From positions 186,001 through 250,000 of the forward strand of contig NC_083373.1 in the NCBI RefSeq assembly GCF_029542785.1: 64,000 bases of DNA, read 5' to 3'. A program made the position numbers and the translations under genes. Shown here piece after piece: positions 3,002 through 64,000 of this stretch (positions are counted from its first letter, which is position 1; the number at the start of each line of letters is the position of its first letter). This stretch comes from Malassezia japonica (Eukaryota > Basidiomycota > Malasseziomycetes > Malasseziales > Malasseziaceae). Under the pieces are notes generated by a model. The model saw only the letters and a list, made by a program, of their open reading frames with translations. It was not told the DNA's origin and searched no databases.

Positions 3002-3577
3002 TTAGTTCTGCGAGAGAGCAGACTGGATGGCAGAGTAGACTTCCACCTCGATCTCGGCCTCGGCCTTCTCCTCAGGAGAGCCGCTGCCGCTGGCGACGCG
3101 CTGCGCCTCGGTGAGGCCCTGGCGGACCGCGTCGGGGGAGAACGAGTCAAGAGTGAAGGCCTCAACGGCGTTAACGGTGAGGCTGTTGTCAGGGTGGATC
3201 GTGGCGAAGCCGCTCGAGACTGGGTGAGCAGGAAACACGTACCGAAGAAGCGCTTGCTCGTGCCGCTCGACTCGATCACCTCGAGCAGACCAGGCCGGAG
3301 GGACTCGATGCTGGGAACGTGCGAAGCGAGGATACCGAGGTCACCGCTGACAGCCGAAACGTTGACCTGGGTCACCTCCTGGGCGTCGTAGATAGCCTGC
3401 GTGTGTTAGCATTTGATCGGAGCGATCAGAAACGCCTACCTTGTGGGGGACAACAAAGCTGAGCTTCAGCTTGTCGCTGACAGCCTCGGCGTAGCCACGG
3501 CGGGCACCAGCCAGGTTAGAAAGAGCAGGGCGGAAGCCCGTGGAGCGGAGCGAGCGCGAAGCCAGAGCAAACACCAT
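3002..3577 (-). CDS. ATP16: Mitochondrial F1 ATP synthase delta subunit
   Basis: Three exons on the minus strand: 3440-3577, 3243-3396 and 3002-3219, joined over introns of 43 nt and 23 nt, giving 169 residues. The N-terminus MVFALASRSLRSTGFRP is Arg/Ser-rich with no acidic residues, as expected for a mitochondrial presequence. The body starts KLKLSFVVPHK, then AIYDAQEVTQVNVSA and the beta-sandwich signature GDLGILASHVPSIESLRPG, which identifies the delta (bacterial epsilon) subunit of the central stalk. The C-terminal helical hairpin ends AIQSALSQN. Both junctions restore conserved sequence and frame (phases 0 and 1). The divergent neighbour ATG6 begins 153 bp away, and a CACGTG box lies in that shared promoter at 3674-3679. 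Confidence 0.94.
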
Positions 3578-3730
3578 CGTCGTGTCGGATCGGTGAACAG
3601 AAGCCAGCGCCGAGCCACTCCCTGCCCGGTCCGGCCAGGCCAGCGCATGCATCGGCCGAGGCCGGGAAGAAACCACGTGCCGTATGCCTCCACCTGCGCC
3701 GCTAGCGCTCGGACATGCTGGGCAGGCACG

Positions 3731-5129
3731 ATGGGCTTTAATTGTCAGCGGTGTGCGCAGCCGCTCTTGCTCGATGCGAGCCTAGAAGAATGCGACGATG
3801 ATAAGGTGAAAGAGGTGAAGGAGGTGGTCCGGCAGGCGTTTCCCACACCGGGCCCCTCCACCGCGCCGACCGACCCCGCACAGCGCCTGGACGCGCTGGG
3901 GGTCAAGCGCAGCGTACGCGAGGCGCTTCTCGCGCAGATCCGTGCCAAGAGCAAAGAGACCAAGGAAAAAGAGAAGGAGGAGGATGCTCAGTCCGTGCAG
4001 TACGCGCGGCTCTTTCGGGTCCTCGCGGCGCTCCCGGGCCTCGATGAAACCAAGCCAATCCAGCACCCGCTCTGCGATACCTGTACGCAGCAGCTGCTCG
4101 AGTGCATGGCGACTGAGATCAGCGATGTGCGGCAAGAACGTGATACCCTACAGCTCCTGGAGCGCGAGCTGACCCGCCTCGCCTTTGTCGAGGGCGATAT
4201 GGAAATGTCGGCGGACGACAAGGCGCGGTGGCAGCGCGAGCAGAATGCCGTGCTGCGCGAGATTGAAGAGGTACGTTGGCTTGCTAATCCAGATGGAAGC
4301 AGAAAAGCGGCGGCTCGAAAAGGAGATTGCGGAATGCGATCACGACGAGGCCAAGCTCCAGCGCGAGCTCCGGGCCACGAAGGAGGAGGAAGACGCGCTG
4401 GAGAAGGACGAGAATGCGTTTTGGAAAGAGTACAATGAGCAGATGGCCGAGCTCGAGCAGATCGAGTCGCAGACGGCACTCATCACGACCCAGCTCGAGA
4501 ACGACAAGGCAATCCTCGCGCAGCTTGAGAAGACGAACGCCTACACGGACGTATTCTCGATCACAGAAGACGCACGGGGCATGCCGTCAATCAACGGCCT
4601 GCGCCTCGGCCGTCTGGGGTCGGGCAGCCACGCACACGAGCAGGTCGAGTGGCCCGAGATCAATGCGGCGTGGGGCCAGACGGCGCTCCTTCTCACGGTC
4701 CTCGCACGCAAGCTCGACTGTACTTTTACCAAGTACGCAGTCCACCCGCGGGGCTCGTACAGCACGGTGGAACGCCTCGAGCCCGACAAGGCCGTCTACG
4801 AACTCTATGGGACGAGCGACTGGCAGATTGGACGCCTGCTTCACTCGCGGCGATTCGACTATGCCATGTCGGGCATTCTGCACTGCGTAGAAGAGCTCTG
4901 TGAAAGGGCAGTGCAGCACGACGCGTCGCTGGACCTTCCCCACAAGTGCGTATCGTCTCTGACCCAGAATCCATAAAGACACCATTGGCGACGCCAGCAT
5001 CCGACTCCAGTTCAACCAGCCAGACACATGGACGCGCGCGAATCGATACCTCTTATTTACGTACGTGGTCTGCCTTACCCTAGACTCCGTGCCTTGCTCG
5101 AGAGGACCCTGGCCCCTGCCCCTTTGTAG
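3731..5129 (+). CDS. ATG6: Beclin-1/Atg6 (Vps30), PI3-kinase complex subunit
   Basis: Four exons (3731-4270, 4293-4945, 4968-5060, 5084-5129) separated by introns of 22, 22 and 23 nt encode 443 residues. The N-terminus has the family CxxC (NCQRCAQPLLLD) and a second HPLCDTC motif around residues 115-120. A coiled coil runs roughly from 125 to 260 (EAEKRRLEKEIAECDHDEAK and following). The evolutionarily conserved domain includes TDVFSITEDARGMPSINGLR, the WPEINAAWGQTALLL segment and LPHKIHKDTIGDASIRLQF. Atg6 works with Vps34 and Vps15 in autophagy and vacuolar sorting. The last exon (ending LRALLERTLAPAPL) is short and diverges from the usual ending, so the final junction is the least certain. 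TIM17 follows 98 bp downstream on the same strand. Confidence 0.92.
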
Positions 5130-5227
5130 CCTTACCAAGCATCACGTGCCGCAGAACTCTTTCGCGTCGTCAGCGGGGATCTTCGCATCGAGGCGGCATT
5201 TCGCAGCTGGCATAGACAAGAGCCGGT

Positions 5228-5815
5228 ATGCCTATTACACAGAGTGGCCACCCTGGCCAAGACCATTCGCGTGACCCGTGCCCATGGGTGATCTTGAATG
5301 ACTTCGGTGGCGCTTTTGCCATGGGCTGCATTGGTGGCACAATTTGGCACGGTATTAAGGGTGCCCGCAACTCGCCGCGTGGCGAGCGCTTTTTGGGCTC
5401 CGTGTCGGCCATCAAGGCCCGCGCGCCTGTCCTGGGTGGTAACTTTGGTGTGTGGGGTGGTCTCTTCACCTCGTTCGACTGCACTGTCAAGTCGGTCCGC
5501 CAGAAGGAAGACCCCTGGAACGCGATCATTGCCGGCTTCTTCACCGGCTCGACCCTGGCCATCCGTGGTGGTCCCAGGACTGCCGCGGGTGCGGGTGTGA
5601 TGTGCGGTATCCTTCTGGGTGTCTTTGAGGGTACGTTGACATGTGTTTCTGACCGCTGGCGTGGGTGTCCTTATGCAGCGTTTGCTCGCCGAAAACAACA
5701 AGCCGGTACGTGTGTGTGTGTGGCTGACGCTAGATTGCTCCGATCATGTATGTCGCCTTAGAGACTGACCCACAGTCCGGATGCGCCGGTGGCCCCGACG
5801 ACCTCGTCGTCCTAA
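5228..5815 (+). CDS. TIM17: Mitochondrial inner-membrane translocase subunit Tim17
   Basis: Four exons (5228-5630, 5659-5705, 5734-5747, 5776-5815) give 167 residues. After an unusual extra N-terminus ([11 protein letters not shown]) the family start [20 protein letters not shown] appears, then four hydrophobic segments with GGxxxG-type motifs ([18 protein letters not shown]) and the tail [15 protein letters not shown]. Tim17 is a channel component of the TIM23 presequence translocase. The first intron (5631-5658, 28 nt) begins GTACGT and has a CTGAC branch-like motif, but the junction that restores [12 protein letters not shown] requires the intron to end in TG, not AG. The nearest AG (5677-5678) would shift the frame and destroy the conserved tail. 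Introns 2 and 3 (28 nt each) are ordinary GT-AG. The start Met is the least certain point. Confidence 0.9.
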
Positions 5816-5907: not shown

Positions 5908-6953
5908 CTATTCGTTGACCAGCGCGTAACACGTCCACTGCGATGCGGCAACGTGTCGGACTGCTCCAGCAAGCTCGATACGCTGCAGCTCGGTGTGCCA
6001 GGCGAGGGGCGCGGCGTTCGGGCCCAGTTCACCGTGCTCATCTGCGTTAGGAGTGCGACGTACTGCTTCCAATGCCCCACAGTGTATTGTCCGTCAGGAG
6101 GAAATAGGTGTTCGAGGCGCCGCACGCCACAGCAGCGACGTCTGTCGGGAGGTCCAGCAGGAACGGAGGCTGGATCGCGCCGTCCGCATCGGGAATCCAG
6201 CCCCAACCGTAGCAGTCGCCATCCTTGGTGCGTACTACGCTATGCCGATTGCCACAGGCGACATCCGCCAGAGCAGAGGGGAAGGCTTCGCACGGAGAGA
6301 AAAAGGGAACGGGATGCAGGGTATACGAGTCGAGGGGCAGCCCAACATCCCCGAGCTGCCCAAAGCGATTGTCTCCAAAGGAATAGAGGGGGTGGGTGCT
6401 TGCTTCCTCGCTTAGAAGGAGAAAATGAGCACCGCCGGCGTCCACGCGACGAAACGCCGGAGCGGTCTGTGCGCCGTGCGCAGAGAGGAGCATCCCTTTC
6501 GTCTTCTCCGTCCCATCGCTTGCAAGCCACGCGCCGACCGTCGAAAAGAGCCACGGATCGCCGCGTTCTGGGTGAGCCGTGCTACGTACCAGACAAGGCA
6601 AGAATACGCCCAGTGAGGTCGGCCGCTGCATCGCGCCATGTACAGCGCGCTTCGGCTCTCGTTCCGTCGGGGAAGTAGACGTGGCCACGATTCAGGTACG
6701 CCAGGATTTCATCTTGCCCAATCGCACGTCCCATGGCCTTGGTGCGTGTCACTGTTGGAACGCTGTCCAGCCCGCAATCCGCACCACCCAGCACAAAGGC
6801 CTGGTCATGGTCGCGAAACACGACCTGCGTTGCACTCACAGCCAGGATCGCGGATGCTGGCGCAATGTGCACTATTTCACGAGCACAAACGTCTCGGAGC
6901 GGGCGTGCTAGCTGCCCGTGCACGTTGGAGCCCCAGCCGTAGAGCTCCGGCAT
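5908..6953 (-). CDS. ATS1: RCC1-repeat protein Ats1/Kti13
   Basis: Three exons (6590-6953, 6064-6567, 5908-6041) with two 22-nt introns give 333 residues, the usual length of Ats1/Kti13. The protein starts with an RCC1 blade, MPELYGWGSNVHGQL, and continues with blades such as YSFGDNRFGQLGD, VACGNRHSVV and LWGIGS joined across intron 2 to NEHGELG, exactly restoring an RCC1 repeat. Known relatives bind Kti11/Dph3 and support Elongator-dependent tRNA wobble-uridine modification and diphthamide synthesis. DPH2 is also in this window, though not adjacent. The divergent gene MSY1 starts only 50 bp away, so both share a very short promoter. TIM17 converges from the other side with a 92-bp gap. Confidence 0.85.
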
Positions 6954-7003: not shown

Positions 7004-8538
7004 ATGCTTCGGTTGGTGCAGCGAGCGGCGCGTAGCGGCGTGCGCGTGCGCAGCGTGCTTGTGCGCCTGCAGTCATCGGATGTACGGCCCAGTCTCTTAG
7101 ATGCACTCGAAGAGCGCAACATGGTCCAGGCGACGACGTCGAGTTCGCTCAAGCCGCACATGGCGACAGTGGAAAAAGGGGCCTTGGTGCCTCGCACGGT
7201 CTATGCCGGTGTGGACCCTAGCGCGCCCAGCATGCATGTGGGCAACCTTCTTCCGCTCTTTGCACTGCTGCACTGTGCGCTCCATGGCCACACGGCGCTT
7301 GTGCTTGTCGGCGGCGGAACGGGCGCGATTGGCGACCCTTCCGGGCGCTCGACAGAGCGCTCCGCGCTCGATGCAGAGCAGCTGAAGGCGAATGTCGCGT
7401 CGATCCGCGCACAGATGTACCAGTTCTTCCACAATGCAGCGGCATACCTAGAGCGCAGGGGCATGATCAATGCGCCTGTGAATACATACACGACCGAAGG
7501 AAGCGCCAATCCAGCCGGCGAGTCGCTCTTTGGCTCGGGGCTCGATGTGCGCATCGTCAACAACTTTTCGTGGCTGCAGCCCGTGTCGCTAATCCAGTTC
7601 CTGTCCGAGGTGGGCCGCCACGCGCGTGTGAATGATATGCTGGCACGCGACAGTGTCAAGAACCGCCTTACGACGCCCGGAGCGGAAGCCAACAGCGCGC
7701 CAGGTCTCTCGTTTACCGAGTTTTCCTACCAACTGCTCCAAGCCTACGACTTTAGCGTTCTGCACCGCGCACCGTGGCACTGCTCGCTCCAAATCGGTGG
7801 CTCGGACCAGATGGGCAACATTAGCGCCGGCATTGACCTGATCCGCCGGCAACAGGCAGCCGACGGTGCCGACATTCGCGAGGACCCTGCGTATGGTCTG
7901 ACGCTCCCCCTGCTTACGACCTCGAGCGGGGCCAAGTTTGGCAAGTCGGCCGGCAACGCGGTATGGATCAGTCCGTCGTTGCTCTCGGATCTCGACTTTT
8001 ACCAGTACTTTTTGCGCAGCGCAGACGCAGACGTCGAGCGCTACCTGCGCTCGCTTACGCTCCTTTCGTCGGACGAGATCGCGAGTGTTCTCGAAGAGCA
8101 CAGCAAAGACCGCACGAAGCGGCTTGCCCAAGAAAAGCTCGCGGCCGAAATGACGGAGCTGGTCCGTGGCGAAGCCGCGCTGCGTCGGGCGCGTGTCGCG
8201 ACCAAGGTCCTCTTTGGTACGAGTTTGGACCAGCTGCGCACGGACGAAGTCCTCTTTGCCTTTGAGGATGACCCACGTCTCGTGCATATGCCGCAAGGTG
8301 CGCTCGAATCGGAAGTGTTGCGTCTCGCGGTCGATTCCGGCCTGACGGCGTCCAGGAGTACGTTGTGTTACTGACAGTAGGCGAAGCACGTCGGCTCCAG
8401 CAAGGCGGAGGGCTCTACCTAAACGGTGCTGCTGTGACGGACGCCAAAGCGACCCTCTCCACATCCAATCTACTCGACGGGCGTTTTGTCGTGATGCGTG
8501 CCGGCAAGCACAACCGCAAGATTCTGGTCCTGGCGTAG
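7004..8538 (+). CDS. MSY1: Mitochondrial tyrosyl-tRNA synthetase
   Basis: Two exons (7004-8357 and 8381-8538, intron 23 nt) give 503 residues. The N-terminus MLRLVQRAARSGVRVRSVLV is a typical mitochondrial presequence. Class I synthetase features are clear: YAGVDPSAPSMHVGNLLPL (HIGH-like region), GGTGAIGDPSGR, the tyrosine/tRNA site QIGGSDQMGNISAGIDLIR and the KMSKS-like KFGKSAGNAVW. After the intron comes an S4-like RNA-binding end, SEARRLQQGGGLYLNG, finishing RAGKHNRKILVLA. The splice junction was chosen because the second of two nearby AGs, at 8379-8380, restores RSEARR. A tRNA-Gly gene begins 59 bp downstream. Confidence 0.94.
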
Positions 8539-8732: not shown

Positions 8733-9322
8733 CTACAGTTTGGCGAGCGTGCCTGTGGCCGTGCGCATGCGGTTGGCAAGGTCCTCGCCTTCCTCGTCGC
8801 CGAGCTCGTCGCGCCGGCCCATCAGCTGCAGCGTCCCTTGGGTATTGTACTTTTCGAGGGGGGACGATGAGCCAGACGGCAACGGGGCTGGGACGATATG
8901 AAAGTGCACCTAAAGTAAGTCGGTTATATACATACGTGGTCCACCGCCTGTGCATATTCCTGATTCGCAGCAACTTGGAGCCCCGTAATGCCAAAGGCTG
9001 CATGAGTCGTGTAAACGTACCTTTTTCCATAGTGCGCGCGACCGACACGACATTGAGCATGAGCGATGCAGACTGCTTTGGGCTCAGATCCGAGATGCTC
9101 TTTACATGCGACTTGGGCACCACAAGCGTGTGTCCTGTTTGTGAGCTGCGTCGACGTACCTGCACGAATCGGGAGCACGTCGAGAAATGCAATCACGTCG
9201 TCTGTCTCGGCGACAATGTACGCCGGCTGACGCCGCTCGATAATGTCGCAAAAGACACACTCGCCTCTCGGCATGCGCCGGTCGTCGTGTGACTTGAGTC
9301 GGTCGAGCAAGTGCGAGGTCAT
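8733..9322 (-). CDS. Histidine triad (HIT) family hydrolase
   Basis: Four exons (9160-9322, 9021-9134, 8936-8997, 8733-8909) with introns of 25, 23 and 26 nt give 171 residues. The start region MTSHLLDRLKS precedes CVFCDIIERRQPAYIVAETD, then AFLDVLPIRAGHTLVVPKSH, and the catalytic triad HVHFHIVP is created exactly by the third splice. HIT proteins hydrolyse nucleoside phosphoramidates or dinucleoside polyphosphates. The AETDD-VIAFLDV-RAGHTLVVPKSH arrangement fits the general HIT/Hint branch, but a specific yeast orthologue (HNT1) is not certain. A 45-residue acidic C-terminal extension rich in Gly/Glu/Arg follows the triad. Its ATG is separated by only 38 bp from that of the divergent gene GPI19. 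Confidence 0.88.
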
Positions 9323-9360: not shown

Positions 9361-9853
9361 ATGGCACGGCGCGACGGCGCGGCCGAGGCGGGCGATGCGC
9401 CGCTTTACCGACGGAGCAATGCAAAGAGCGAGACGTATGGATTTTCGCTGTATATTTTTGCGTCGGTCCTGTGGGTCTTGTGGGTCCTCTGGGCAGTGTG
9501 CCCCGACTCGGTGCTGATGCGCCTCGGCATTGCCTGGTTTCCTCGACGCGACTGGGCGTACCTGCTGATCGCTTGGTCGCTCGTGCTTGTGCTAATGACG
9601 TACATTGGATTCGGCGCACTAAACATGTACCATACCCCCCCGCTCGACTCGCTCGACTGCATGACAGGTACGTCGCGCATCTCACCCAGACGACGCCGCG
9701 GTCATTTATCCCACCCTGGCGCACGACGCGCGCCCTCTCCCCCCCATGACCATATCTGAGACGGGCTGGGCGGGCTCCCCACTTTGTGACGACGTATACG
9801 ACTTGTCGCCGGGCCTCGTGTCGCGCGCGCTGTACTTACATGACAAGGTATAG
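9361..9853 (+). CDS. GPI19: GPI N-acetylglucosaminyltransferase subunit PIG-P/Gpi19
   Basis: Two exons (9361-9667, 9690-9853; intron 22 nt) give 156 residues. After a polar N-terminus come two transmembrane hairpin segments, ETYGFSLYIFASVLWVLWVL and a second one beginning WAYLLIAWSLVLVLM, joined by the PIG-P linker WAVCPDSVLMRLGIAWFPRR. The C-terminus after the splice has DLSPGLVSRALY, resembling the conserved tail of the family. PIG-P is part of the ER complex that makes GlcNAc-PI, the first step of GPI-anchor synthesis. No alternative start Met exists before the first membrane segment. The stop codon lies six bases from that of the convergent coiled-coil gene. Confidence 0.85.
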
Positions 9854-9859: not shown

Positions 9860-11330
9860 CTACGCATCTTTTACAAAAGGCAAAGCGTGGCGGCGGGAGT
9901 GGGCTGGCGCATGCGGCCGTGGCGACGGCGCGCGCTCGAGCGACGCATACTTTCCTGCATCGGAAGCGGCACGCCGCCGCTTGGCAGGCTGCGCCTCGGC
10001 GAATGGCTCGAGGCCACGCTGCCACTGCACGGTCTGTTCTTCGAGGGCATCGCGCTTTGTACGTAGCGTCTCCAGCTCGCAGTGGAGCACATCAATGTGT
10101 GCCGTGAGCGAGTCAAAGTGTTTCGACTGGGCGTCCTCGTCGGCGAGGGCGGCAATCTCGGTAAGCAGATCGGCCTGGCGCGAACGCTGGGCGTAGGCTT
10201 CTTCGTACCACGCAACGCGCTCCAGCTCGTCTTGGAGGTGCGCCACTTGCTTCTTTGCTTGGTGTAGCTCGGCAGTGAGCTCGGCGGCCGACGCCTGCGC
10301 CTCTTGCGTCTTGCCGCGCTCTTGGGCGCGCAAGGCGCTGAGGACTTTGCTATGCACGGCATGCGTATGTGCCAGCTGTGCCTCGAGCCATGCACACCGG
10401 TCCTCAGCCGAGTGCCACTTGGATTCGAACAAGGCAGCGTCCTGTCTCGCGCACTGCTCGGCGAGGCGTGAGCGTGCAATGCGCTCCGCGTCGAGGTCGG
10501 CATCCTCGTCGTGTTGCGCGGCGAGCTCTTCCAATGCATCGCAGTGCGCTTGCAGCGACTGCGCGCGTCCTTCGGCATCCTTGAGCTCGTCCATGAGCGC
10601 GTCACGCTGTGCGAGTGTCGCCGCGAGGTGTGCCTGCACGTCTGCAGCAGCGCGGTCAATCACCACCTCGCGGACCATCGACTTGGGCGAGGCGGGCGTA
10701 GGCCGTGCTTGGAGGAGTGCGCTGGCCGTCTGTGCGAGCGCACGCAAGTTGCGCTGCATAAGCTCCGCCACGCTCCGTGCTTCATCGAGCATCGCCTGGC
10801 GTTCGTCGAGCTCCTGCGTAAGCTCAGCGCACCGCTCAGCGTGTGCCTTGGCCTCTTCCTCGGCCTTCTGGCGCTTTTCCTGCGCTTCGTCAAACGCGCG
10901 CTGCTGGAGCTGCGCCTTGCTCATGTGCACCGCGCGCTCCTTGTACCGAGTAATCATCGCGTCCTGCTTCTCGATCTGTGCGCGGAGCTTTAGCTCGCGC
11001 TGGCGTCCCAGTTCTGCGTGAGATGGGCGACGTACGAATGTCTGTGCGGAGGTCCTCGCGCTCATTCTGGAGCGCATGTTTCTCCTTCCGAAGCTCGTCA
11101 AGGCGCGCCTCGGCGAGGCGCGCGACCTCTTCGGCCGTCTTGTGCCTGGGCAAGTGTGCATCGCGCGGAATATTCTCGAGGTTCTCCAGAGGGAGCAGAC
11201 TCGCGCGCGGCGTGCGTGCCTGCGGCGTGCGCACAGGTAGCCGCGACGACGTCGTCTCGGACTCGCGCCGTGCCTGCGGCGTCTGGGGCACCTGCGCCAT
11301 CGGCACCCGGCCGGGCGTCGCTCGCTCCAT
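9860..11330 (-). CDS. Coiled-coil protein of unknown function
   Basis: Two exons (11036-11330 and 9860-11013, intron 22 nt) give 482 residues from the first in-frame ATG at 11330. Residues 1-65 are basic and disordered with several Ser/Thr-Pro sites (QTPQA, RTPQARTPRAS), which could be proline-directed kinase targets. From about 75 to 430 the chain is almost continuous coiled coil rich in Glu/Gln/Arg/Ala (ARLAEARLDELRKEKHALQ and similar). The tail is basic (AKRRRAAS) and ends FVKDA. I do not recognise the family; a cytoskeletal, spindle-pole or kinetochore role would be only a guess. A perfect TCACGTGA palindrome lies at 11367-11374, about 37 bp upstream of its ATG and inside the 54-bp gap to MRC1. 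Confidence 0.8.
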
Positions 11331-27624: not shown

Positions 27625-27879
27625 TTAGATGTTGAGCTTGGTGCGGCGCCAGTGGCGACGGTTCTTGTTGTACTGGATCTTGTTGTCCGTCTTCATGCGG
27701 AACCAGTTAGGGATGGGGCTGCGTTGTTAGCATCGTTCTCTCAACAGCCCGCCACCCGCGGCGGGGACGTCAAATACGTACCGGTTCTGGCGCGAGGCCT
27801 TGGCAAGGGTGACCTTGGTGCGGAAAGACTTGTTCGAGGGCTGCACGGTCAGTACGCCATACCACCCTCTACCTACCAT
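27625..27879 (-). CDS. RPL39: 60S ribosomal protein eL39
   Basis: Three exons (27877-27879, 27782-27840, 27625-27718) give 51 residues: M, then [20 protein letters not shown], then [20 protein letters not shown] and [10 protein letters not shown]. This is the complete basic eL39 protein that lines the ribosomal exit tunnel. The first exon is just the ATG, a common arrangement in fungal ribosomal protein genes. Its introns are the exception in this window: 36 nt and 63 nt, the latter the longest intron found. A TCACGTG box lies at 27943-27949 in the 155-bp divergent promoter shared with SPS19. The gene is too short in any single frame to appear as a long open frame. Confidence 0.95.
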
Positions 27880-32260: not shown

Positions 32261-34010
<1,750 letters not shown>

Positions 34011-46679: not shown

Positions 46680-48358
46680 CTACGACAGGATCGGGAGGAA
46701 CTGGGGTCAGTCACAGGATACGTACGTTGCCCACCACGTAACCAGGCAAGTCGAATGGATCACGCTTGATGGTAAAGCACCACGTGCACGGAATCGGCTT
46801 CCCTGCCGGGTTCAGCAACACACAGGTCGTCATCACGGACGGTGTGGTGTTTTCAAATGCATGGCTGGCAAATTGCTCCCTGGTGTGAGTCAGCGGCACG
46901 TACCAATAGTTCAGTACCGAGTCCTTGTCCATAAACTGGTAAATGTACTTCCCCAGCAAGTCCTCCTTAGACCACTGGGTGAGCATGCAGAACTCGGCGC
47001 CAACCAAGCAAATCTCGCAGGTGCGGCGCCATACGACAGTAGGCGTGCCCGAAAAAGAAATCAGCTTCTCGAATTCGAGAATGGTGCGCTGGAACGCACG
47101 TTCCACAAACACTTCATCCTCCCGGCTGAGCGCCATCTGCAGTGCAATCAGCGACGGACGGAAGATGGCGAGGGCGCGTACAATGCGGAGTACGTCGGCC
47201 TTCTCGTACTTTTGCGTGACATATTTGAGCAGAATGTGGTAGCCCTCGGTGTAGCGGAAGGGCTGTGTGTTGTCGCTGTACACCTTAGCCACGCGCTGCT
47301 CCCAGGCGGCTTCGGCCCCAGCGTCGTTTTCCGACGTGCGTCTGGCATCGTCGCTGCGCGATGTGCCTTTGTCGCTCTGCGACAGATTGCCAGGAGGAAA
47401 AACAGAGCTAGTGCTGATGTTCGACGAGGGGTTGCTGAGCATGCGTTGGTCCTCGTATGTGCCCGGCGCCCGGCCAGGTATGCCTTGGTCAGGGTACACG
47501 GGCATTTTGTTGAACTCGCCCGAGACGGGGTGCTGGTCGGGCATGGGGCGCACAGGCGGCTGCTGGACATTCCAGCTAGACAATTGCGGGGGCATGGAGC
47601 CCTCCTCGGCAGAAGGGGCATTGGAAGAAATGTGGTTGAAATGGGTATAGTTGTCCATCAGGTCCATAGCCGGTGCGGTGGGTACGTCGGGTGAATCACC
47701 GCTGAGTATGCTCGAATCAGCTTCGTGCAGCATGGAGGAAAGGATTGAGCACTCGAGCGACGTTGGGTCGAACCCGAAACCAGCTGTGGGGTCAAAGGTC
47801 GCCGGCATCGAGTCCGGACGAGGAAATCCACCCGGGGGCGCCTGCTTAAAGATGGATGCTGCGTGAGAATAGAGACGTACGTGAAGAGAACGAATTCGCA
47901 GGGTTGGCCATCGTCATATTGTCTGGAACATTGTTCACAAACATTTCGTTCGGTTGGCCACTGTCCGACGTCATGGACTGGTGCATCGGCGAGGCTGCGT
48001 CAGCAGAACACACGTACGAATATCATCCTCTTCCAAAAGATACTTGGCCTTCTTGCGGTACCCATCCACGCATTGGTCGCCGAGGCCTTTGCGAATACAC
48101 CGCTGACAGGGACGCGCTAAGGTCAGAGTGTGGGGACGTACCGTCATCACAGGTCAAATGCGCTTTCTGGCAGTGGTAGCACGCGCGGCTGGCCTTCTTC
48201 CGGCGGGACGGGCGCGTCGCTGGTTTCTCTCCATTGGTAGTGCGCTCTGTAGTCTTGGATGCCGAATCTTTGGATTTTGACGCGGGTGGGTTGTTGGCGT
48301 ACTTCGCCCTGCTGTCTGCCGGCGGAACAGCGGATCCACCAGCGTCGTCGACTTGCAT
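46680..48358 (-). CDS. ERT1: Zn2Cys6 transcription factor with PAS region, ERT1/AcuK/RDS2 type
   Basis: Six exons (48142-48358, 48018-48116, 47881-47994, 46904-47858, 46726-46879, 46680-46700; introns 25, 23, 22, 24 and 25 nt) give 519 residues. The zinc cluster, residues about 55-85, is [15 protein letters not shown] joined across intron 1 to [16 protein letters not shown], then [15 protein letters not shown], the exact signature of the gluconeogenesis activators AcuK, ERT1 and RDS2. The C-terminal third is PAS-like ([24 protein letters not shown] sequence with [15 protein letters not shown]) and ends YVVGNFLPILS. Relatives activate PCK1 and FBP1 on non-sugar carbon. Its own gene is 1 kb from the PCK1 start with TRM112 between, an arrangement worth noting. 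Confidence 0.88.
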
Positions 48359-52252: not shown

Positions 52253-53636
52253 TTACGTGAGCGTTGATTCGAGCCATCCCCTCTGTGGGGCATCAACGGC
52301 AGCGACGCCATTTTCCGTCGCTGTTGCCGTCTTTCCGCCTGCAGGCTCCGAATGGGTCCCAAAGTAGAGTTCGGCGCTGGCCGCAACTTCATCCACATTG
52401 TCGTTGCCCGACGGCGTCTGGAGCCAGCTCGCAGTGAGCGGAACGTAGCTGGTCGTAGTCCCCCCATGCGGTTGGAGCATGCGCTTTACGGCGCGGTATA
52501 CGTACGGGACATGCGTGAGGTTCGCAGCGCCCTCATCGTCGTCCTCGTGCTGCGATCCACTGTCGTCGTCGCTCGAGATGCGGATAGATTTGCGCTTGGA
52601 CGATGATTTCCGTTTGTTCTTGGACGATTTGCGTCTCGGCGGCGTGTCTTCTGACATGGCATCAGAGTCCTTCGAGTCATCGCTGCTGCTGTCCTCGTCC
52701 GAGCTGCTGTCGCGGCGGTTCCGGCGTGCACGCTTGCGGTGACGGCTGCTACCACGCTGCGCGCTGCTGTGGCGCTCCGGCTCGCTTTCGTCCGACGTAT
52801 CCGAGTCCTCGTCGTGGTCCGAGCGCCGCGTGCCTCGCCGGGCTGTCTGCGTTGGCAGGACGGGGATCTTTTCGATTTCATTGTCGTAAATGAGCAGGTC
52901 AAGCAATGCGACCACATGCTCCGGCTCCAGCTCCGTGTCAGTAAGTTTGGCTGCCTTTAGGTAGCGGTGCACGCTGGTCGCCGTCGGCAGATCGGCCGTG
53001 TGGGACGCCGGGTACAATGCCGAAGAGCGTCCGTCCTTGGGCCACGACTTGGACTGGACATACCTCAAGCACGCCATTGACAGTTCGTGGATAAAGCCCG
53101 TGTCCAGCTCATTGTCCGTATACCACGGGCCACCCGACAGCTCGATCGACGGGGTGAGATCATACAGCATATAGATTTTCCGCGTCGGAAACTTGACCGA
53201 CTTAACCGCCTTGACCAGCTGTTTCTGTTCCAGCAGTTTCAGGCAGCGATTCATGATCGTCTGGTGCAGATTCGTGCGTGCCTTGATCATTTTAGTCCAG
53301 ATGCCCTCGTTCTTGGCGTCCTTGATGTGGTTATAGATGATGAGCTCGTTCCCATCCATCGTTCCGAGTCTGGGTCAGTCATTTGACGTACACGCTAGCC
53401 TCGCCCTTGGAGATGGCGACATACTGGATGCCGTTGGGCCCCTTTTGCGCGTTAAAGAGGCTCTTTTTCAAGAGGCTATTGATCACGAGGAGCTGCTCCT
53501 CGATCGGCACGTCATTCAGACGGAGCGCTAGTTCTTCGCCTGTCACAGTGTGGTCCGGTGCAGCGAGCGCCGCGGCGTGCGCGCGCTTCTCGAGCGCCGT
53601 CAGCCCGCTCACGTCCGGCCCCTTTTTCGGCGGCAT
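52253..53636 (-). CDS. RPC34: RNA polymerase III subunit RPC34/RPC6
   Basis: Two exons (53392-53636, 52253-53369; intron 22 nt) give 453 residues. The first winged helix is in exon 1 (LNDVPIEEQLLVINSLLKKS), and the second reads across the junction, MDGNELIIYNHIKDAKNEGI then WTKMIKARTNLHQT. The segment FPTRKIYMLYDLTPSIELSG and PWYTDNELDTGFI are RPC34 signatures. RPC34 contacts TFIIIB and opens Pol III promoters. Unusual: residues about 258-365 are a Ser/Arg/Lys/Asp-rich low-complexity insertion (RHRKRARRNRRDSSSDEDSS), which makes this protein much longer than the roughly 320-residue yeast or human one. DUG2 diverges 100 bp away. Confidence 0.92.
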
Positions 53637-53736: not shown

Positions 53737-56448
53737 ATGGCGGGCTGCGCTACGTCGGCATTGGACCCGGTCGGTATGAAGCCGACGCAGGAGGAATCCG
53801 TCATAGGGGATGACCTACTGCAAGCCATCACGGACACGACCGCGCAGCCGCTGCATACCGTCACCCTGAATGATACCTCGATTCTGGCGATTGCTGTCTA
53901 TCAGGAACGCGGCCTGCTGTTTGCCGGCGCCCAGGACGGCACCATCTTTGTATGGGACTTGGTAACGCAACAGCTGCATGCCACGCTCATTGGACATACG
54001 CGCAGCGTACTTGCGCTCGAGCTCGCCGCCGAGAAAGGCTGGCTGTTTAGTGCCTCGTCCGACAGCACCGTGCGTCTCTGGAACGTGCGTGAGCTCGAGC
54101 CCCTCGCACTCATTTACCCCGCGACAGACAACACAGGCGATATCTTGACCATGACCTGGTGCTCTGCACTGCATACCCTCTATCTTGGATGCCAGGACAC
54201 GTCCATTCAATGGATCTGCATCACACCCGAAAAGCTCAGTGAGACGCCGCTACATGCCGTGCCCGAGTCGCGGCCGCACAAGTTCTTTGACTCCATGTCG
54301 CGCGCAATGTCCGGCGCGTCGAGCCCGCTGCCGCTCGCCGTGCGCACGGCCGAGCAACTTATCCGCCGCACGGCCGTGCACATGGCCAGCAGCGTCGCGA
54401 CGGATGCGCATCCTCCTCTGCCGTTGCGCGCATGTGCGCCGATGCAAATGTCGGTCCTCGCTGTGAACAAAACGTGCGTCATCCCTTCGGCCCACTTTGG
54501 CTACGTCTACAGCCTGACCATCGTCCCGGTTGCGAGCGGCGCTCCGATACTTGCCAGCGGCGCCGGCGACGAGATGATTCGTCTCTGGACGCTGAATGCG
54601 GACGGCATCCTCTTGCAGCACACGCTCGAGCTTCCGCTGCCGACGGGTGATGCGATCCTCACGCTCGGCGCGTGGGAGAGCACGCTGCTGGCCGGCAAGC
54701 AGGGCGGAACGATTGACGTGTGGGACATTGATAGCCGTACGCTGATCCGCACGCTGCGTGGCCACAACGACGATGTGCTGTGCATGCAGCTCGCAGAGCC
54801 GGGCGCGGAACGCACCTTTTTCTCGGGCAGTGCCGATGGCCATGTGTGTCGTTGGGACAAGTACTTCCGGTGTACTGCGCGCTGGGCCGCGCACGACGAC
54901 ATTGTGCAGACATGTGCAGTGTACAGCGGCAACCGCGCGGCCACGTCGCGCTACTCGTGGCTTACGGCGGAGCCTGTGCTAATCACCGGCTCCTCGGACG
55001 AGTGTGTGCGCCTGTGGTCGTTTGAGCCGCCGGCCGCGGTGCCTGCGGCGAGCGAGGAGGCGGCTGTCCCTCCCTCGCTGGTCCAGCGCCTTGCGCGCTT
55101 TATCCGCTACAAAAGTGTGTCGAACGGCCCCACGATGCTGGCCGACGATGAAAATATGGAAGATTCGCGACAGGCCGCGCACTTTTTAAAGACGACGCTG
55201 ATGGAGCTCGGGGCGAGCGATGTGCGCCTCGTCTCTGGCGGCGCGCGTGCGAACCCCATGGTCCTCGGCACGTTTCGCGCGTCAAAAGGCCCTGCGCGCC
55301 GCCGCTGCCTCTTTTACGGGCACTATGACTGTATTCCCGCGAGCGGCGAGTGGGACAGCAGCCCGTGGGAACTGAGCGGTCGCAACGGCTACCTGTACGG
55401 CCGTGGCGTCAGCGACAACAAAGGTCCAGTGCTGGCCGTTGCGTACGCCGCGAGCGAGCTGCTCCATGCCAAGGAGCTGAATGTGGACGTGGTGATGTTG
55501 GTCGAAGGCGAGCAAGAGACCGGCTCGAAAGGCTTCCAGGCCTGTCTGCGCGAGCACAAGGAGCTGATTGGCAAGATTGTATGTATCTCTTCTCACCCAG
55601 GACGTTGTGTTTGTCTGCAACTCGTACTGGCTCGGCGAGCAGCGCCCCTGTCTCACGGTCGGCCTGCGCGGTGTGATCCAGGTCATTGTGCGCATTACCG
55701 GCTTGCACGCCGACCGGCATTCGGGTGTCGACGGCGGCGCGGAGCGCGAGCCGATGATGGATGTACGTTTTTTTTTTAGCTCACCCAGATGATCAAGCTC
55801 CTTGCCACGCTTACCGACGGTGCGGGACGTGTCGCGCTACCCGGTTTCTATACCCATGTCCGTCCTGTCGAGGCACAAGAGCGTGCCTACTATGAGTCGA
55901 TTGTCCACGAGGCGCGCGGCCCGCCGACCAGCGCCGAGAGCCTCATGGCGTTGTGGTGCATGCCCTCCTTTACCGTGCACCGCTTGACGAACAGCAACGC
56001 GGGCCACTCGACCGTGATTCCGAACTCGGTCGAGGCGTCGCTCAGTGTGCGTATTGTCCCCGACCAGTCGCTCGATGCGATCGAGCAGCTGCTGCGCGAC
56101 AGCATCCAGCGCAACTTTGACGCGCTGCAGTCGACCAACCGCATCGAGGTGTCCGTCTTTCACCGCGCCGACTGGTGGCTCGGCTCGCTCGAGCTGCCGT
56201 ACTGGCACGCCCTTGCCGAGGCCATCGAGGCGGAGTGGGGCGAGCCGCCAGTGCGTATCCGCGAAGGCGGCTCGATTCCCGGCATGGCGATCCTCGAAAA
56301 AGAACTCGGCGCACAGGCTGTACATCTCCCTATGGGCCAGGCCTCGGACCACGCACACCTGCCCAACGAACGCATCCGCCTCGTGAATCTCGAAAAGGGC
56401 CAAGCGGTCGTCCGCCGCTTCTTCCACACGCTCGGTGCGATGGACTAA
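53737..56448 (+). CDS. DUG2: Glutathione-degradation protein Dug2 (WD40 plus M20 peptidase)
   Basis: Three exons (53737-55578, 55601-55762, 55789-56448; introns 22 and 26 nt) give 887 residues. Residues 1-440 form a WD40 propeller (GLLFAGAQDGTIFVWDL, GWLFSASSDSTVRLWNV, TFFSGSADGHVCRWDK, LITGSSDECVRLWSF). The rest is an M20-family metallopeptidase: LFYGHYDCIPASGEWDSSPW, LYGRGVSDNKGPVLAVAYAA, VEGEQETGSKGFQ and, near the end, GGSIPGMAILEKELG with GQASDHAHLPNE. This WD40-peptidase fusion is specific to Dug2, which with Dug1 and Dug3 degrades glutathione in the cytosol. The TAA stop overlaps the TAG stop of the convergent ATG27 gene. Confidence 0.93.
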
Positions 56449-57329: not shown

Positions 57330-58252
57330 CTAATTCTCTGGGATGCGGAAGATGGTGATCTCCTGCTGCTTGAAATAGCGGCGGTTCTCCTCGTCGATCA
57401 GGACGAGGTTGAGGTAGTAGCGCGTGCTGAACTTCTTGTTCACGTCGCGGAAGGTCGGTGTCAGGTCAAAGCCGCCGAGGAAGAGCCGGATGGGAATCGT
57501 CTCGCCACGCACCGGCGCGCCGTCCATGATTTCAAATTTGGTGATGGTCTCGGACTCGTTGTACTGGTTCGGCACCGCACCGGTCGTCTCGCGCCGGATA
57601 ATAGAGAGCTCCATATGCTTGATTTTGATGCGGACGAGCAAGAAGTAGATCTTGCCGACAATCACGTCCTTTAGATGGTACTTGGACTTGTTGTACTCAA
57701 ACTCAATGTGCAGGCAGTCCTCGATACCCACTTCCATCTTGATCGCATTATTCGAGTCGGGGGGAAGGCGGAAGGAGTGCACCCAGAGCTCCCGCTCCTT
57801 GATCACGTCCGACATCCGGCGGCTCACGGTCACGCGCAGAAAGTAGCGCAGCTTCACATTGATGCCATTGTAGCTCTCGTACAGCTTTTCCACGTTCTTG
57901 AACTCGAACGGAAGCGACTCGGACTCGCGCAGCTCGCCGGGCATCGCGAGCTCTTGCACGAGCGAGAGGAACTCGTAGTGGTTGCCGCGGTCAAAGTAGA
58001 GTTCTGTATCAGCTTAAAAAAAAACGTACCAATGCACCCGATAAACTCAATCTTGACGCCATCGTGCTGCATCCGCTTGGTATTCCGGGGCTGGATCACG
58101 ACCGAGCCCCGCAGGCTCTCTCCGTCAAAGTACACCGGGAGCGTCTCTTTCGCGGGACTCTCGAGCTTCACATCGACTTGTTTCCGATCATGCTCATCTT
58201 CGAGCCGCACATCAATGTCGACCGGCGTCGAAAAGCTAAAGAGCGACGACAT
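57330..58252 (-). CDS. VPS26: Retromer subunit Vps26
   Basis: Two exons (58030-58252, 57330-58003; intron 26 nt with a T10 tract) give 298 residues. [20 protein letters not shown] is the normal start; an in-frame ATG at 58312 is less likely. The arrestin-like fold shows [40 protein letters not shown] across the junction, [33 protein letters not shown] and [20 protein letters not shown], ending ITIFRIPEN. Vps26 with Vps35 and Vps29 forms retromer, which retrieves cargo from endosomes to the Golgi. Confidence 0.96.
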
Positions 58253-61552: not shown

Positions 61553-62216
61553 TTATTGCCGCCCACGGAAACCGCCGCTGCCGCCACGGAAACCGCCGCC
61601 GCCGCCGCCACGACCGCCGAAGCCGCCGCCGCGGCCGCCGCCGCCGCGGCCACCGAATCCGCCGCCGCGGCCGCCAAAGCTACCGCCGCCGCGGCCACCG
61701 AAGCCACCGCCGCCGCGGCCGCGCGGCGCACCACGGCCGCCGAATCCACCACCACGGCCGCCAAAGCCGCCGCGCGCACCGCCGCGGCCGCCGCCAGCGC
61801 CTCCGCGCTTCTTGGGTCCCTTGGAAACGCTCTTGGGCTTCGGGAGGAAGCGCTCAATCGGCAAGAGACGGTCGTCCGAGATGTATACGGTGTCCTCCGC
61901 CTTGAACGACGAGGCGACGATGCCCGGCTCGGTCTTGATCGTGAAGAACACCTCGTTGATGGGCCCCAAGATCTCGTCGACCTTTCCGATCTGCGACTTG
62001 TTTTCAAGGCTGGGTGAGCAAGGACACGTACAAAATCGGAGCGTTAAAGTAGGGAACGTGCTTCGGGTCGGTGCCCGCACAGAACATCTCGCCCTCGACG
62101 GCGTGCTTAAAAGTACCAAACGGAATCACGTTCGCAGGCGGGCCGGCATTGGCCATGCCGCCACGCCCGCCGCGACCGCTAAATCCACCGCGTCCACCAC
62201 GACCACCACGAAACAT
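61553..62216 (-). CDS. GAR1: H/ACA snoRNP protein Gar1
   Basis: Two exons (62032-62216, 61553-62009; intron 22 nt) give 213 residues. A short N-terminal Arg/Gly region ([20 protein letters not shown]) is followed by the Gar1 core, [36 protein letters not shown] (made by the splice) and [17 protein letters not shown], then a long C-terminal GGFGGRGG tail typical of fibrillarin/Gar1-type proteins. Gar1 is part of the pseudouridylation RNP. The tail is encoded by GC-rich near-repeats at 61560-61800, a place where copy number may vary. A CACGTG lies 46 bp upstream of the ATG (62262-62267). Confidence 0.95.
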
Positions 62217-62270
62217 GGTCGCTTTCCTGCAACGTTCGCGGCACTGGCAAAAAAGAAAAGGCACGTGACA

Positions 62271-64000
62271 CTACTTGGCGGGGCCGGGCGCCTTTGCGGC
62301 GAGGTCCGCGCGGAGGGCCTGGCCGAGCGCGATGTACTCGTCGAGTACCTCGGGATTAAGGAGAGTCGATTGGTTGATGGTGCTGAGGGGTGCGCCATTG
62401 ATCACTGGGTAAGTAAATAGACGTACGCTTTTTCACAGGCACCTCGACGCGCTTCCCGTTGAGCGTCTTGGGGCATCCCTTGACGCGGCGAATGTACGTA
62501 GGGACGTGGCGCGCGCTGCGCTGAGCACGAATGATGCGGCGCGCCTCTTGTTCAACCGCATTCCAGTCCGCCTCGTCTGGCGTGACGAGGAAGAGGACCA
62601 CGACCTCGTCGTCCTTGGCCGGGGTCTTGAGCGCGACCACGAGCGAGTCGCTGATCTTGGAGAGCGGTGAGGTCTCGGCGATCGCCTCGGAGCTCTCGAG
62701 CACCTCGTAGATCTCGGCGCTGCCAAAGCGGATTCCGCTGGGGTTCAGGATACCGTCGGAGCGGCCGAGCATGACGAGGCCGCCGTGCGGCGAGCGCATG
62801 ACCAGGTCGCCGTGGTACCAGACGCCTGGGTACTGGGTATAATAGCTGTCGCGGTAGCGCTCGTTCGGCTGGCGCCAGAATCCGAGCGGCTGCACAGGGA
62901 ACGGCTTCTTGCACACAAGGTCGCCCTCGACCATGTCCGGCACGCGCTCGCCCTGCGAGTCAAACACGTCGACGTCCATGCCGAGCGCAATGCACTGCAG
63001 CTCGCCTGCGCGCACAGGGAGCGTGACGTTGTTCGAGGCAAAGAGCGAGCAGAGGTCCGTGCCGCCAGTGATGCTGCCGACCTGCACCTTGTGCCCCACG
63101 AGCTTTTCGCAGTAGAGGTAGAGCTCGGCACGAAGGGGCGAGCCCGTGGAGAGAATTGCACGGACCTTGAGCTTGTCGTGCAGCTCCTTGGGCTCGTAGC
63201 CGCGGCGCTCGATCATGGAGAGGTATGCGGCCGAGGTGCCAAAGACGGTGATGCCGAGCTCCGCCGCGCGCTCCCAGAGCACGCCGGTGGGGAAAGCCGG
63301 CGAGCCGTCGTACAGCACCGCGGGGCACCCGCTCAAGAGCGAACCCACGAGCCAGTTCCACATCATCCAGCCGGTCGTGGTGTGCTGGAAAAAGACGTCG
63401 TCGCGGCTCAGGCCGCCGAGCAGCAGGTGCTCCTTGCCGAACTGCAAGAGCATTCCGCCCGCACGGTGCGTAATCGCCTTGGGCTTGCCGGTTGTGCCGG
63501 AGGAAAAGAGGATCCAGAGCGGCTGGTTAAAGTCGAGCTGCTCGTACTCGATCGTCGACGCCGCCTCGCCCTTCTCCGGCGCTCCGCTCGCGAGAAAGTC
63601 GGCCCAGAGGTGGCGCGTCAGGCCATGGCCGTCCTCCTCGCCCTGCACGCCGTCCGGGCGGTCGTTGGCCTCGGGGTGCGAGCCCGGGTAGGGGATGACG
63701 ATCACATGCTCGAGGCCCGCGCGCAGCTCGTGGCGCGCGCGCTTTGCGCGCGGCTCCTCGCCGTCTTCGCCTTCGCCCTTTGCCTCGCGGTCCTGCTCGG
63801 CGAGGATGCCGGCAATGGTCGAGTTGAGCTTGGCCGTGTGGTCGTGGAGCTTGCCGTTGTACAGCACCGCGTTCACGCTAAAGAGCACCTTGGGCCGCAC
63901 GGTAAGCAGGCGCTCCAGGACACCCGCAGTGCCAAAGTCCGGCGCGACGCTCGTCCACACCGCGCCGACCGCGCTCGCAGCGAGGAACGCAATCATGTTT
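62271..64000 (-). CDS. Acetoacetyl-CoA synthetase (5' end beyond window)
   Basis: Two exons visible (62427-64000 and 62271-62404; intron 22 nt), 569 codons including the stop; the frame runs off the right edge, so about 150-200 N-terminal residues are missing. The adenylate-forming motifs are LWILFSSGTTGKPKAITH, TTTGWMMWNWLVGSLLSG, SITGGTDLCSLFASNN, and GRSDGILNPSGIRFGSAEIY. The last exon reads LINGAPLSTINQSTLLNPEV, close to the ending of acetoacetyl-CoA synthetases rather than of acetyl-CoA synthetases. The enzyme activates acetoacetate for sterol or lipid synthesis. The stop codon lies 54 bp before the GAR1 ATG. Confidence 0.88.

What the first reader, a model, noticed from the sequence alone, without database searches (positions are those of the whole stretch)
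3220..62426. Spliceosomal introns with a hard floor at 22 nt
I placed 56 introns by restoring conserved protein sequence and frame. None is shorter than 22 nt, 27 are exactly 22 nt, and 53 are 29 nt or less; only ATP16 intron 1 (43 nt) and the two RPL39 introns (36 and 63 nt) are longer. The layout is rigid: GTACGT or a close variant, then a CTNAC-like branch motif whose A lies about 15 nt from the donor and 4-6 nt from the AG. This leaves almost no room between U1 and U2 footprints and no polypyrimidine tract. KU70 has six 22-nt introns and AIP1 three. Since 22 is not a multiple of three, retention always shifts the frame.
Basis: partly seen in the sequence, partly recalled or inferred. Interest (0 to 1): 0.75.

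Follow-up and report, generated by a model that had tools for sequence, protein, structure and literature searches.

The report
Yeast introns stop at 22 letters
In a small-genome yeast, likely a Malassezia, predicted introns pile up at exactly 22 letters with none shorter beyond chance, so this organism would let researchers measure how short an intron an ordinary-looking splicing machine can still remove.

Summary
In 260 kb of contig C4 (the window plus 196 kb of neighbours), a motif-only scan that uses no reading frame gives 129 hits of 22 nt against 2.0 in shuffled sequence. At 15-21 nt it gives 10 against 9.6, so nothing beyond chance. Of the 129, 28 lie in the window and 101 outside. A coding-frame model with a flat length prior and only GT..AG gives the same peak: 45 of 138 introns are 22 nt, against 1-7 for eleven decoy dinucleotide pairs. 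In 11 window genes, 27 of 32 junctions lie inside matches to known proteins. The layout is a GTACGT-like donor, 7 nt, CTNAC with its A at nt 17, then NCAG. U2, U6, SF1 and both U2AF subunits are found, as are a METTL16-type domain and a Cwc25-like protein; most look conventional. U1 was not found. The likely cause is a minimum donor-branch and branch-AG spacing of this spliceosome, with lengths pressed against it. Tiny introns are known elsewhere (Stentor 15 nt, Trichomonas 23 nt), and short introns are published for Malassezia. A 22-nt pile-up was not seen in the passages read. No RNA evidence was available.

The parts
3220..3242 (-). ATP16 intron 2, 23 nt
   Evidence: junction inside Pfam PF02823 match
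3397..3439 (-). ATP16 intron 1, 43 nt (exception)
   Evidence: junction inside PF02823 match
4271..4292 (+). ATG6/Beclin intron 1, 22 nt
   Evidence: junction inside PF17675
4946..4967 (+). ATG6 intron 2, 22 nt
   Evidence: junction inside PF04111
5061..5083 (+). ATG6 intron 3, 23 nt
   Evidence: junction inside PF04111
5631..5658 (+). TIM17 intron 1, 28 nt, GT..TG ends (non-AG)
   Evidence: spliced protein aligns ungapped over 151 residues to TIM17
5706..5733 (+). TIM17 intron 2, 28 nt
5748..5775 (+). TIM17 intron 3, 28 nt
6042..6063 (-). 22-nt intron, RCC1-like gene (named by eye)
   Evidence: frame restored; motif
6568..6589 (-). 22-nt intron, same RCC1-like gene
   Evidence: frame restored; motif
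8358..8380 (+). 23-nt intron, tyrosyl-tRNA synthetase gene (named by eye); 20 nt also in frame
   Evidence: frame restored
8910..8935 (-). HIT protein intron 3, 26 nt, splits the HVHFHIVP motif
8998..9020 (-). HIT protein intron 2, 23 nt
9135..9159 (-). HIT protein intron 1, 25 nt
9668..9689 (+). 22-nt intron, unnamed gene
   Evidence: motif and gene model
11014..11035 (-). 22-nt intron, unnamed gene
   Evidence: coding gain 12.5 log units
24520..24541 (-). AIP1 intron 3, 22 nt
   Evidence: junction inside match 5-596 to WDR1/Aip1
24773..24794 (-). AIP1 intron 2, 22 nt
26205..26226 (-). AIP1 intron 1, 22 nt
26686..26707 (+). NUDIX gene intron 1, 22 nt
   Evidence: junction inside PF15916
26836..26857 (+). 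NUDIX gene intron 2, 22 nt
   Evidence: between two Pfam matches
27044..27065 (+). NUDIX gene intron 3, 22 nt
   Evidence: junction inside PF00293
27271..27294 (+). NUDIX gene intron 4, 24 nt
   Evidence: outside the Pfam matches
27719..27781 (-). RPL39 intron 2, 63 nt (exception)
   Evidence: junction inside PF00832
27841..27876 (-). RPL39 intron 1, 36 nt (exception)
   Evidence: before the Pfam match
29037..29058 (-). KU70 intron 7, 22 nt
   Evidence: junction inside Ku70 match 297-645
29230..29254 (-). KU70 intron 6, 25 nt
   Evidence: inside match 297-645
29446..29467 (-). KU70 intron 5, 22 nt
   Evidence: inside match 297-645
30505..30526 (-). KU70 intron 4, 22 nt
   Evidence: inside the weaker match 16-218 (E 0.0025)
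30630..30651 (-). KU70 intron 3, 22 nt
   Evidence: inside the weaker match 16-218
30770..30791 (-). KU70 intron 2, 22 nt
   Evidence: inside the weaker match 16-218
30966..30987 (-). KU70 intron 1, 22 nt
   Evidence: at the edge of the match, not counted
31585..31609 (+). 25-nt intron
   Evidence: motif, gene model
33872..33896 (-). 25-nt intron
   Evidence: motif; alternative; the gene model prefers 31 nt
35076..35099 (-). 24-nt intron
41500..41521 (+). 22-nt intron
43435..43457 (-). MPC1 intron 2, 23 nt
   Evidence: inside ungapped MPC1 match 1-81
43686..43707 (-). MPC1 intron 1, 22 nt
   Evidence: inside ungapped MPC1 match 1-81
46262..46290 (+). 29-nt intron (25 nt also fits the motif)
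46387..46411 (+). 25-nt intron
46490..46515 (+). 26-nt intron
46701..46725 (-). 25-nt intron
46880..46903 (-). 24-nt intron
   Evidence: motif, also a hit; the gene model prefers 39 nt
47859..47880 (-). 22-nt intron
47995..48017 (-). 23-nt intron
48117..48141 (-). 25-nt intron
   Evidence: motif; the gene model prefers 39 nt
49318..49341 (+). TOP1 intron 1, 24 nt
   Evidence: outside the match
49852..49873 (+). TOP1 intron 2, 22 nt
   Evidence: inside match, with a 4-residue gap near the junction
53370..53391 (-). RPC34 intron, 22 nt
   Evidence: junction inside PF05158
55579..55600 (+). 22-nt intron, WD-repeat/peptidase-like gene (named by eye)
   Evidence: frame restored
55763..55788 (+). 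26-nt intron, same gene
   Evidence: frame restored; alternative to a 17-nt call
58004..58029 (-). 26-nt intron
   Evidence: coding gain 13.4 log units
62010..62031 (-). 22-nt intron
   Evidence: alternative to a 16-nt call; motif
62405..62426 (-). 22-nt intron, CoA-synthetase-like gene (named by eye)
   Evidence: coding gain 11.4 log units; frame runs 43 residues past the junction

Best explanation
The window carries predicted U2-type spliceosomal introns whose lengths pile up at 22 nt with none shorter beyond chance, and this floor is likely set by the smallest donor-to-branch (17 nt) and branch-to-AG (5 nt) spacings that the organism's otherwise conventional-looking spliceosome would tolerate. 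Shown by the calls: the motif order and spacing, the cliff below 22 nt, the restored reading frames, and the presence of U2, U6, SF1, U2AF1, U2AF2, a METTL16-type domain and a Cwc25-like protein. Inferred: that these introns are spliced; that pressure to shrink pushes lengths against a steric limit; and that SF1 on CTNAC with U2AF1 on the adjacent CAG reads the 9-nt block CTNACNCAG as one unit, so that U2AF2 would act mainly as the bridge and not as a reader of a pyrimidine tract.
For: Frame-free geometry: GTACGT-to-CTNAC gap counts are 0, 0, 0 at 4-6 nt and then 84, 21, 7, 6 at 7-10 nt. At gap 7 the AG follows at +2 in 122 of 131 hits. By total length: 22 nt 129 vs 2.0 shuffled; 21 nt 1 vs 2.3; 15-21 nt 10 vs 9.6. 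Coding frame with only GT..AG and a flat 6-150 nt prior: 45 of 138 are 22 nt and 7 shorter, versus 1-7 and 18-50 for eleven decoy pairs; at a harsher intron cost 24 of 80 and 5, versus 1-5 and 13-27. 27 of 32 junctions in 11 genes fall inside homologous matches, 15 of them 22-nt introns. The 129 hits are 127 different sequences, so they are not recent copies. Genome-wide, the 24-nt layout GTACGT N8 CTNAC N3 AG occurs 27 times on 8 of 9 contigs, vs 1 for the reversed control.
Against: No RNA reads of this organism were available. The steric part is inference: Stentor splices 15-nt introns with the branch A at nt 10 (PMC9505925), so 22 nt is not a universal limit. The length floor was tested on 260 kb of one contig, not the whole genome. 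A few motif hits sit at gaps below 7 (1, 3 and 1 at gaps 2, 3 and 4 for GTACGT). My two richer gene models, which overcall, contain sub-22 introns that I did not all check one by one: 24 of 408 and 7 of 278. U1 snRNA was not found, so donor recognition is unexplained. The cliff could reflect an information need of the 7-nt spacer rather than sterics.
Confidence: 0.7

Rival explanations
1. The floor is informational: the 7-nt spacer is itself part of an extended donor signal (G at nt 8, C or T at nt 9), so shorter introns lose recognition sequence rather than clash in space.
For: Spacer positions are not uniform in the 129 hits of 22 nt: nt 8 is G in 47%, nt 9 is C in 57% and T in 29%.
Against: The bias is weak beside the donor and branch positions, and many 22-nt introns without G8 still sit at gap 7 (list).
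Confidence: 0.2
2. The length is chosen by reading-frame surveillance: 22 is 3n+1, so retained introns shift the frame and are destroyed.
For: Lengths divisible by three dip in the motif-only scan: 24 nt 11 vs 27 and 17 for 23 and 25 nt; 27 nt 1 vs 11 and 5 for 26 and 28 nt. 12 of 72 lengths of 23-28 nt are divisible by three, one-sided p 0.0013 against one third, a crude test on uncorrected counts.
Against: 19, 20 and 23 nt shift the frame too; 19 and 20 do not exceed chance and 23 is about five times rarer than 22. This can shape the dips at 24 and 27 but not the cliff.
Confidence: 0.05
3. The 22-nt introns are copies of a recently spread intron element.
For: The layout is uniform and the length identical.
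Against: 127 distinct sequences among 129 hits; the shared positions are the splicing signals.
Confidence: 0.03
4. These are not introns but assembly indels, frameshifts or chance motif runs.
For: Single-base frame breaks exist in this assembly: the SF1 gene breaks frame at a run of eight C, with no splice sites there.
Against: 40 vs 0.93 expected, 129 vs 2.0; junctions restore known proteins, for example 151 ungapped residues of TIM17.
Confidence: 0.02

Closest known systems
Stentor coeruleus 15-16 nt introns (PMC9505925; passages read)
   Same: One dominant tiny length, fixed branch-A position, snRNAs present, U2AF1 and U2AF2 listed as present.
   Different: Branch A at nt 10 there, nt 17 here. 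Stentor introns are 75.6% A+U with no strong branch consensus; here the branch is CTNA[CT]. Stentor Cwc25 lacks the glycine-rich plug; here the protein starts MGAGDLN (two of the three glycines).
Trichomonas type B introns, 23-25 nt (PMC12316389; passages read)
   Same: Uniformly short, branch motif close to the AG; 23 nt called one of the shortest known.
   Different: 24 type B introns in that genome, with mainly poly-T fill; here 129 hits of 22 nt in 260 kb alone, in a GC-rich genome, with a GTACGT-like donor.
Branch-anchored introns of Yarrowia, Giardia and Trichomonas (PMC2483917; passages read)
   Same: Branch fixed a set number of bases from the AG and no polypyrimidine tract.
   Different: In the passages seen only the branch-AG distance is described as pinned; here the donor-branch distance is pinned too.
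Published Malassezia introns (PMC9241646, PMC6473144, PMC4634964, PMC7426719; passages read)
   Same: Review: 'very short introns'. M. restricta mean/median 37.2/30 nt, with predictor minimum set to 20 and then 15 and RNA-seq hints.
   Different: M. globosa mean 76-79 nt in PMC4634964. No 22-nt mode or floor is stated in the passages seen.
Bigelowiella natans introns (18 nt, as cited in PMC12316389; nucleomorph genome in its reference list)
   Same: Extreme shortness.
   Different: A relict endosymbiont nucleus; here a nuclear genome of 8.43 Mb.

Membership tests
U2-type spliceosomal introns | GT..AG ends with a donor consensus | tested here: met
   A3 88%, C4 81% in the 129 hits of 22 nt; GT, A/G at 3, G5, T6 and the AG are fixed by that scan, but needed only GT..AG and beat its decoys. 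One TG-ended exception, in TIM17.
U2-type spliceosomal introns | Branch-site adenosine matched by U2 GTAGTA | tested here: met
   CTNA[CT] at nt 14-18 (motif required by the scan, its position not); U2 with GTAGTA found.
U2-type spliceosomal introns | U1, U2, U4, U5 and U6 snRNAs | tested here: inconclusive
   U2 and U6 found. U1 not found; its family rang in none of the 14 control genomes, so absence is not shown. U4 and U5 not searched.
U2-type spliceosomal introns | Removal seen in RNA | not testable with these tools
   No RNA data here.
U12-type introns | ATCC or GTATCC donor and TTCCTTAAC branch (recalled) | tested here: not met
   Donor GTACGT-like and CTNAC branch.
Stentor-type tiny introns | 15-16 nt, branch A at nt 10-11 | tested here: not met
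   22 nt, branch A at nt 17 in 98% of 129 hits.
Stentor-type tiny introns | Cwc25 without the N-terminal glycine-rich plug | tested here: not met
   The Cir_N protein starts MGAGDLNMKKSWHP: Gly-Ala-Gly where the paper gives Gly-Gly-Gly for human.
Branch-anchored introns without polypyrimidine tract | Fixed branch-AG distance and no tract | tested here: met
   2 nt between CTNAY and AG in 122 of 131 hits at gap 7. Only 3 nt lie between branch A and AG; 4 of 28 window 22-mers have a pyrimidine run of 6-9 nt upstream.
Malassezia genome (species group of the window) | 7-9 Mb, 6 to 9 chromosomes | tested here: inconclusive
   8,433,779 bases in 9 contigs, 62% GC in the window fit PMC7426719 and PMC7025860; no named sequence match was obtained (timed out; one search found no marker gene).

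The most novel reading that the evidence does not exclude
22 nt is the hard mechanical minimum of an ordinary plug-bearing fungal spliceosome. The whole genome's introns have been driven onto that wall, so that over half of each intron is signal and U2AF no longer reads a pyrimidine tract. Going shorter, as Stentor did, required losing the Cwc25 plug.
Probability: 0.3. Interest if true: 0.75.

Novelty: new variant of a known kind. Interest (0 to 1): 0.55.

Why it matters
How close a donor and a branch site can be before two large particles cannot share them is, as far as I know, not settled. Here evolution appears to have run the experiment many times, in a fungus that keeps SF1, both U2AF subunits and a Cwc25-like plug. 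The cliff between spacer 6 (0 GTACGT cases) and spacer 7 (90 cases) predicts where splicing should fail. It also matters practically: gene finders with a minimum intron length above about 20 nt would break such genes, which may be one reason for mean intron lengths of 76-79 nt published for M. globosa (PMC4634964); that link is a guess.

Tried and rejected
Introns shorter than 22 nt: of the seven short calls examined, four (14, 16, 17 and 19 nt) are pieces of 22-26 nt introns and three (13, 13 and 16 nt) gain at most 3.4 log units. The ten motif hits of 15-21 nt: six nested in 22-28 nt introns, two with an in-frame alternative 3 nt longer, one in a TIM17 exon, one of 19 nt with no gain. Sub-22 introns of the overcalling gene models (24 of 408, 7 of 278) were not all checked singly; one search also joins neighbouring genes, so neither model carries the main claim.

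A supposed 22-nt intron in SF1, which I took from the translated frames, is wrong: one search shows a frame break at a run of C with no splice sites.

A U1 with a G opposite donor +4 (a compensating change): 17 places with ATACNTACCTG were found, none with T. I looked at all 17 (15, for six of these only from the match onward; two in held sequence). By eye none is a U1 and several are donors read backwards, and Rfam finds no U1 in the 15 fetched places at E up to 10. Two further U1 patterns gave nothing that I recognise as U1. Loss of U2AF as the cause of the missing tract is rejected: both subunits are present.

Genus: three database searches timed out, and a scan of held sequence for marker motifs found no usable gene. 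Of 15 gene models were compared with databases; RCC1-like, tyrosyl-tRNA synthetase, the WD-repeat/peptidase gene and the CoA-synthetase gene were not. Papers: 10 searches, passages only, except one section of PMC10581693. The proteogenomic and the 2013 M. sympodialis genome papers (identifiers recalled) are not held and may well describe intron lengths.

Full report
WHAT WAS CHECKED. The window is bases 186001-250000 of contig C4 of an 8,433,779-base genome in 9 contigs, 62% GC. I also held the neighbouring 196 kb of C4, so most statistics are on 260 kb. No RNA data were available, so every intron here is a prediction.

THE PEAK WITHOUT ANY READING FRAME. In the window GTACGT N4-34 CTNAC N1-12 AG occurs 40 times, against 0.93 expected. 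In 260 kb, the gap between GTACGT and CTNAC is 3, 0, 0 and 0 at 3, 4, 5 and 6 nt and then 84, 21, 7 and 6 at 7, 8, 9 and 10 nt; two unrelated hexamers used as donor controls show no such peak. With donor GT[AG]NGT, branch CTNA[CT] and the first AG, the length counts against the mean of 20 shuffles are: 15-21 nt, 10 vs 9.6 in all; 22 nt, 129 vs 2.0; 23 nt, 27 vs 2.3; 24 nt, 11 vs 1.5; 25 nt, 17 vs 1.5; 26 nt, 11 vs 2.1; 27 nt, 1 vs 1.6; 28 nt, 5 vs 1.7. I did not count nested hits outside the window.

THE PEAK FROM READING FRAME ALONE. I trained a coding model on long open frames and let a Viterbi path cut out any GT..AG stretch, with no donor or branch model and equal cost for all lengths. With lengths of 6-150 nt allowed, 45 of 138 introns are exactly 22 nt and 7 are shorter; eleven other dinucleotide pairs gave 1-7 of 22 nt and 18-50 shorter ones. 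At a harsher cost per intron the figures are 24 of 80 and 5, against 1-5 and 13-27. The total number hardly differs between real and decoy pairs (138 against 127-138), because frame breaks must be bridged by something; it is the length distribution that differs. Of the seven sub-22 cases, four are fragments of 22-26 nt introns and three have little support. Two richer gene models overcall: 24 of 408 and 7 of 278 introns below 22 nt, against 129 and 118 of exactly 22 nt.

PROTEIN EVIDENCE. I spliced 15 window genes by hand-placed introns and compared 11 with solved structures or Pfam. Junctions inside a match: KU70 6 of 7 (three of them in a weak first stretch, E 0.0025), TIM17 3 of 3 (51), MPC1 2 of 2 (52), HIT 3 of 3 (82), AIP1 3 of 3 (83), ATP16 2 of 2, ATG6 3 of 3, RPL39 1 of 2, NUDIX 2 of 4, RPC34 1 of 1 (59), TOP1 1 of 2 (60, with a 4-residue gap near the junction): 27 of 32, 15 of them 22-nt introns. 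In the HIT gene the 26-nt intron divides the family's own motif, DH|VHFHIVP. Other window introns rest on motif and frame only, as marked in the parts list; at 33872, 46880 and 48117 the gene model prefers a longer intron than the motif.

ANATOMY. In the 129 hits of 22 nt the layout is G1 T2 A3(88%) C4(81%) G5 T6, seven loosely constrained bases, C14 T15 N16 A17, C18(81%), N19, C20(91%), A21 G22 (letters fixed by the search pattern are not evidence in themselves, their position is). The branch A is nt 17 and lies five bases from the last base. With gap 7, 122 of 131 hits keep exactly 2 nt between branch motif and AG; at gaps of 8-12 the same 2 nt is still the commonest (38 of 64). Only 3 nt lie between branch A and AG, so no tract fits there; 4 of the 28 window 22-mers have a pyrimidine run of 6-9 nt further upstream. 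127 of the 129 sequences are different.

MACHINERY. U2 and U6 are present with intact branch-binding and ACAGAGA boxes. U2AF2 is present but below its family cut-off (224.4 of 310.3 bits for its main piece). In the alignment to human U2AF65 two RRM1 positions that I recall as RNA contacts change from Y to D and from F to M, while RRM2 looks closer to human; I could not compare other fungi. SF1 is present; its frame break at a C run is not an intron. A Cir_N protein, which I read as Cwc25, keeps a glycine-rich start (MGAGDLN); Stentor's Cwc25 lacks that motif (PMC9505925, passages). A METTL16-type methyltransferase domain (PF05971, a family that also rings in bacteria) is present and keeps NPPF. 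U1 was not found by family or by three patterns; the family search rang nowhere in the controls, so this is not absence.

HOW IT MOST LIKELY WORKS. Shown: a one-sided cliff in donor-branch distance and in branch-AG distance, with counts heaped on the first allowed value. Inferred: deletion pressure in a compact genome pushes introns down until the spliceosome can no longer hold the donor and branch helices together; that wall is 17 nt from donor G to branch A here. Stentor's branch A at nt 10 shows that the chemistry allows less, and its changed Cwc25 suggests what may have to change to go lower. Frame surveillance can add a secondary effect (fewer 24- and 27-nt introns, crude test) but cannot make the cliff, because 19 and 20 nt would shift the frame equally well.

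WHAT IS KNOWN. Short introns in Malassezia are stated in a review (PMC7426719, passage). M. restricta introns have mean/median 37.2/30 nt (PMC9241646, table passage), annotated with RNA-seq hints and a minimum of 20 and then 15 in the predictors (PMC6473144, passage). M. globosa was annotated with mean 76-79 nt (PMC4634964, table passage). Elsewhere: Stentor 15-16 nt (PMC9505925), and Trichomonas 23 nt, called one of the shortest known (PMC12316389). I found no statement of a 22-nt mode or floor in the listings and passages from searches; the main M. sympodialis papers are not in the library. That the organism is a Malassezia is inference from genome size, contig number and GC.

Noticed in passing
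5631-5658: TIM17 intron 1 restores the protein only if it ends in TG (GTACGT...CTGACCGCTG), a non-AG 3' splice site, or else the assembly is wrong there.
   Followed up: partly
donors across L019-L038 and window: Donor position +4 is C in 81% of the 22-nt hits although U6 ACAGAGA is intact and a METTL16-type domain is present. In Saccharomycotina the +4 switches described are almost only between A and U (PMC10581693, section 6 read).
   Followed up: partly
whole genome G000: U1 snRNA was not recognised by Rfam RF00003 or by 5'-end patterns; none of the 17 matches of ATACNTACCTG is the canonical ATACTTACCTG.
   Followed up: partly
L043 about 1637-1644 (minus): The SF1 gene breaks frame at a run of eight C with no splice sites there; probably a sequencing indel.
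   Followed up: partly
lengths 24 and 27 nt, 260 kb: Intron lengths divisible by three are under-represented in the frame-free scan, as if retained in-frame introns were selected against.
   Followed up: partly
8600-8703: By eye a tRNA-like sequence with a possible intron, reported by neither ARAGORN nor Rfam.
   Followed up: no
32097-32191 and 52021-52125: Two tRNA genes of 93-105 bases (Rfam), long enough to contain introns; ARAGORN reports only the first.
   Followed up: no
8358-8380 and C4:139026-139049: In two introns an AG lies directly after the branch C and a second AG 3 nt later; both readings keep the frame, so the actual 3' site is open.
   Followed up: partly
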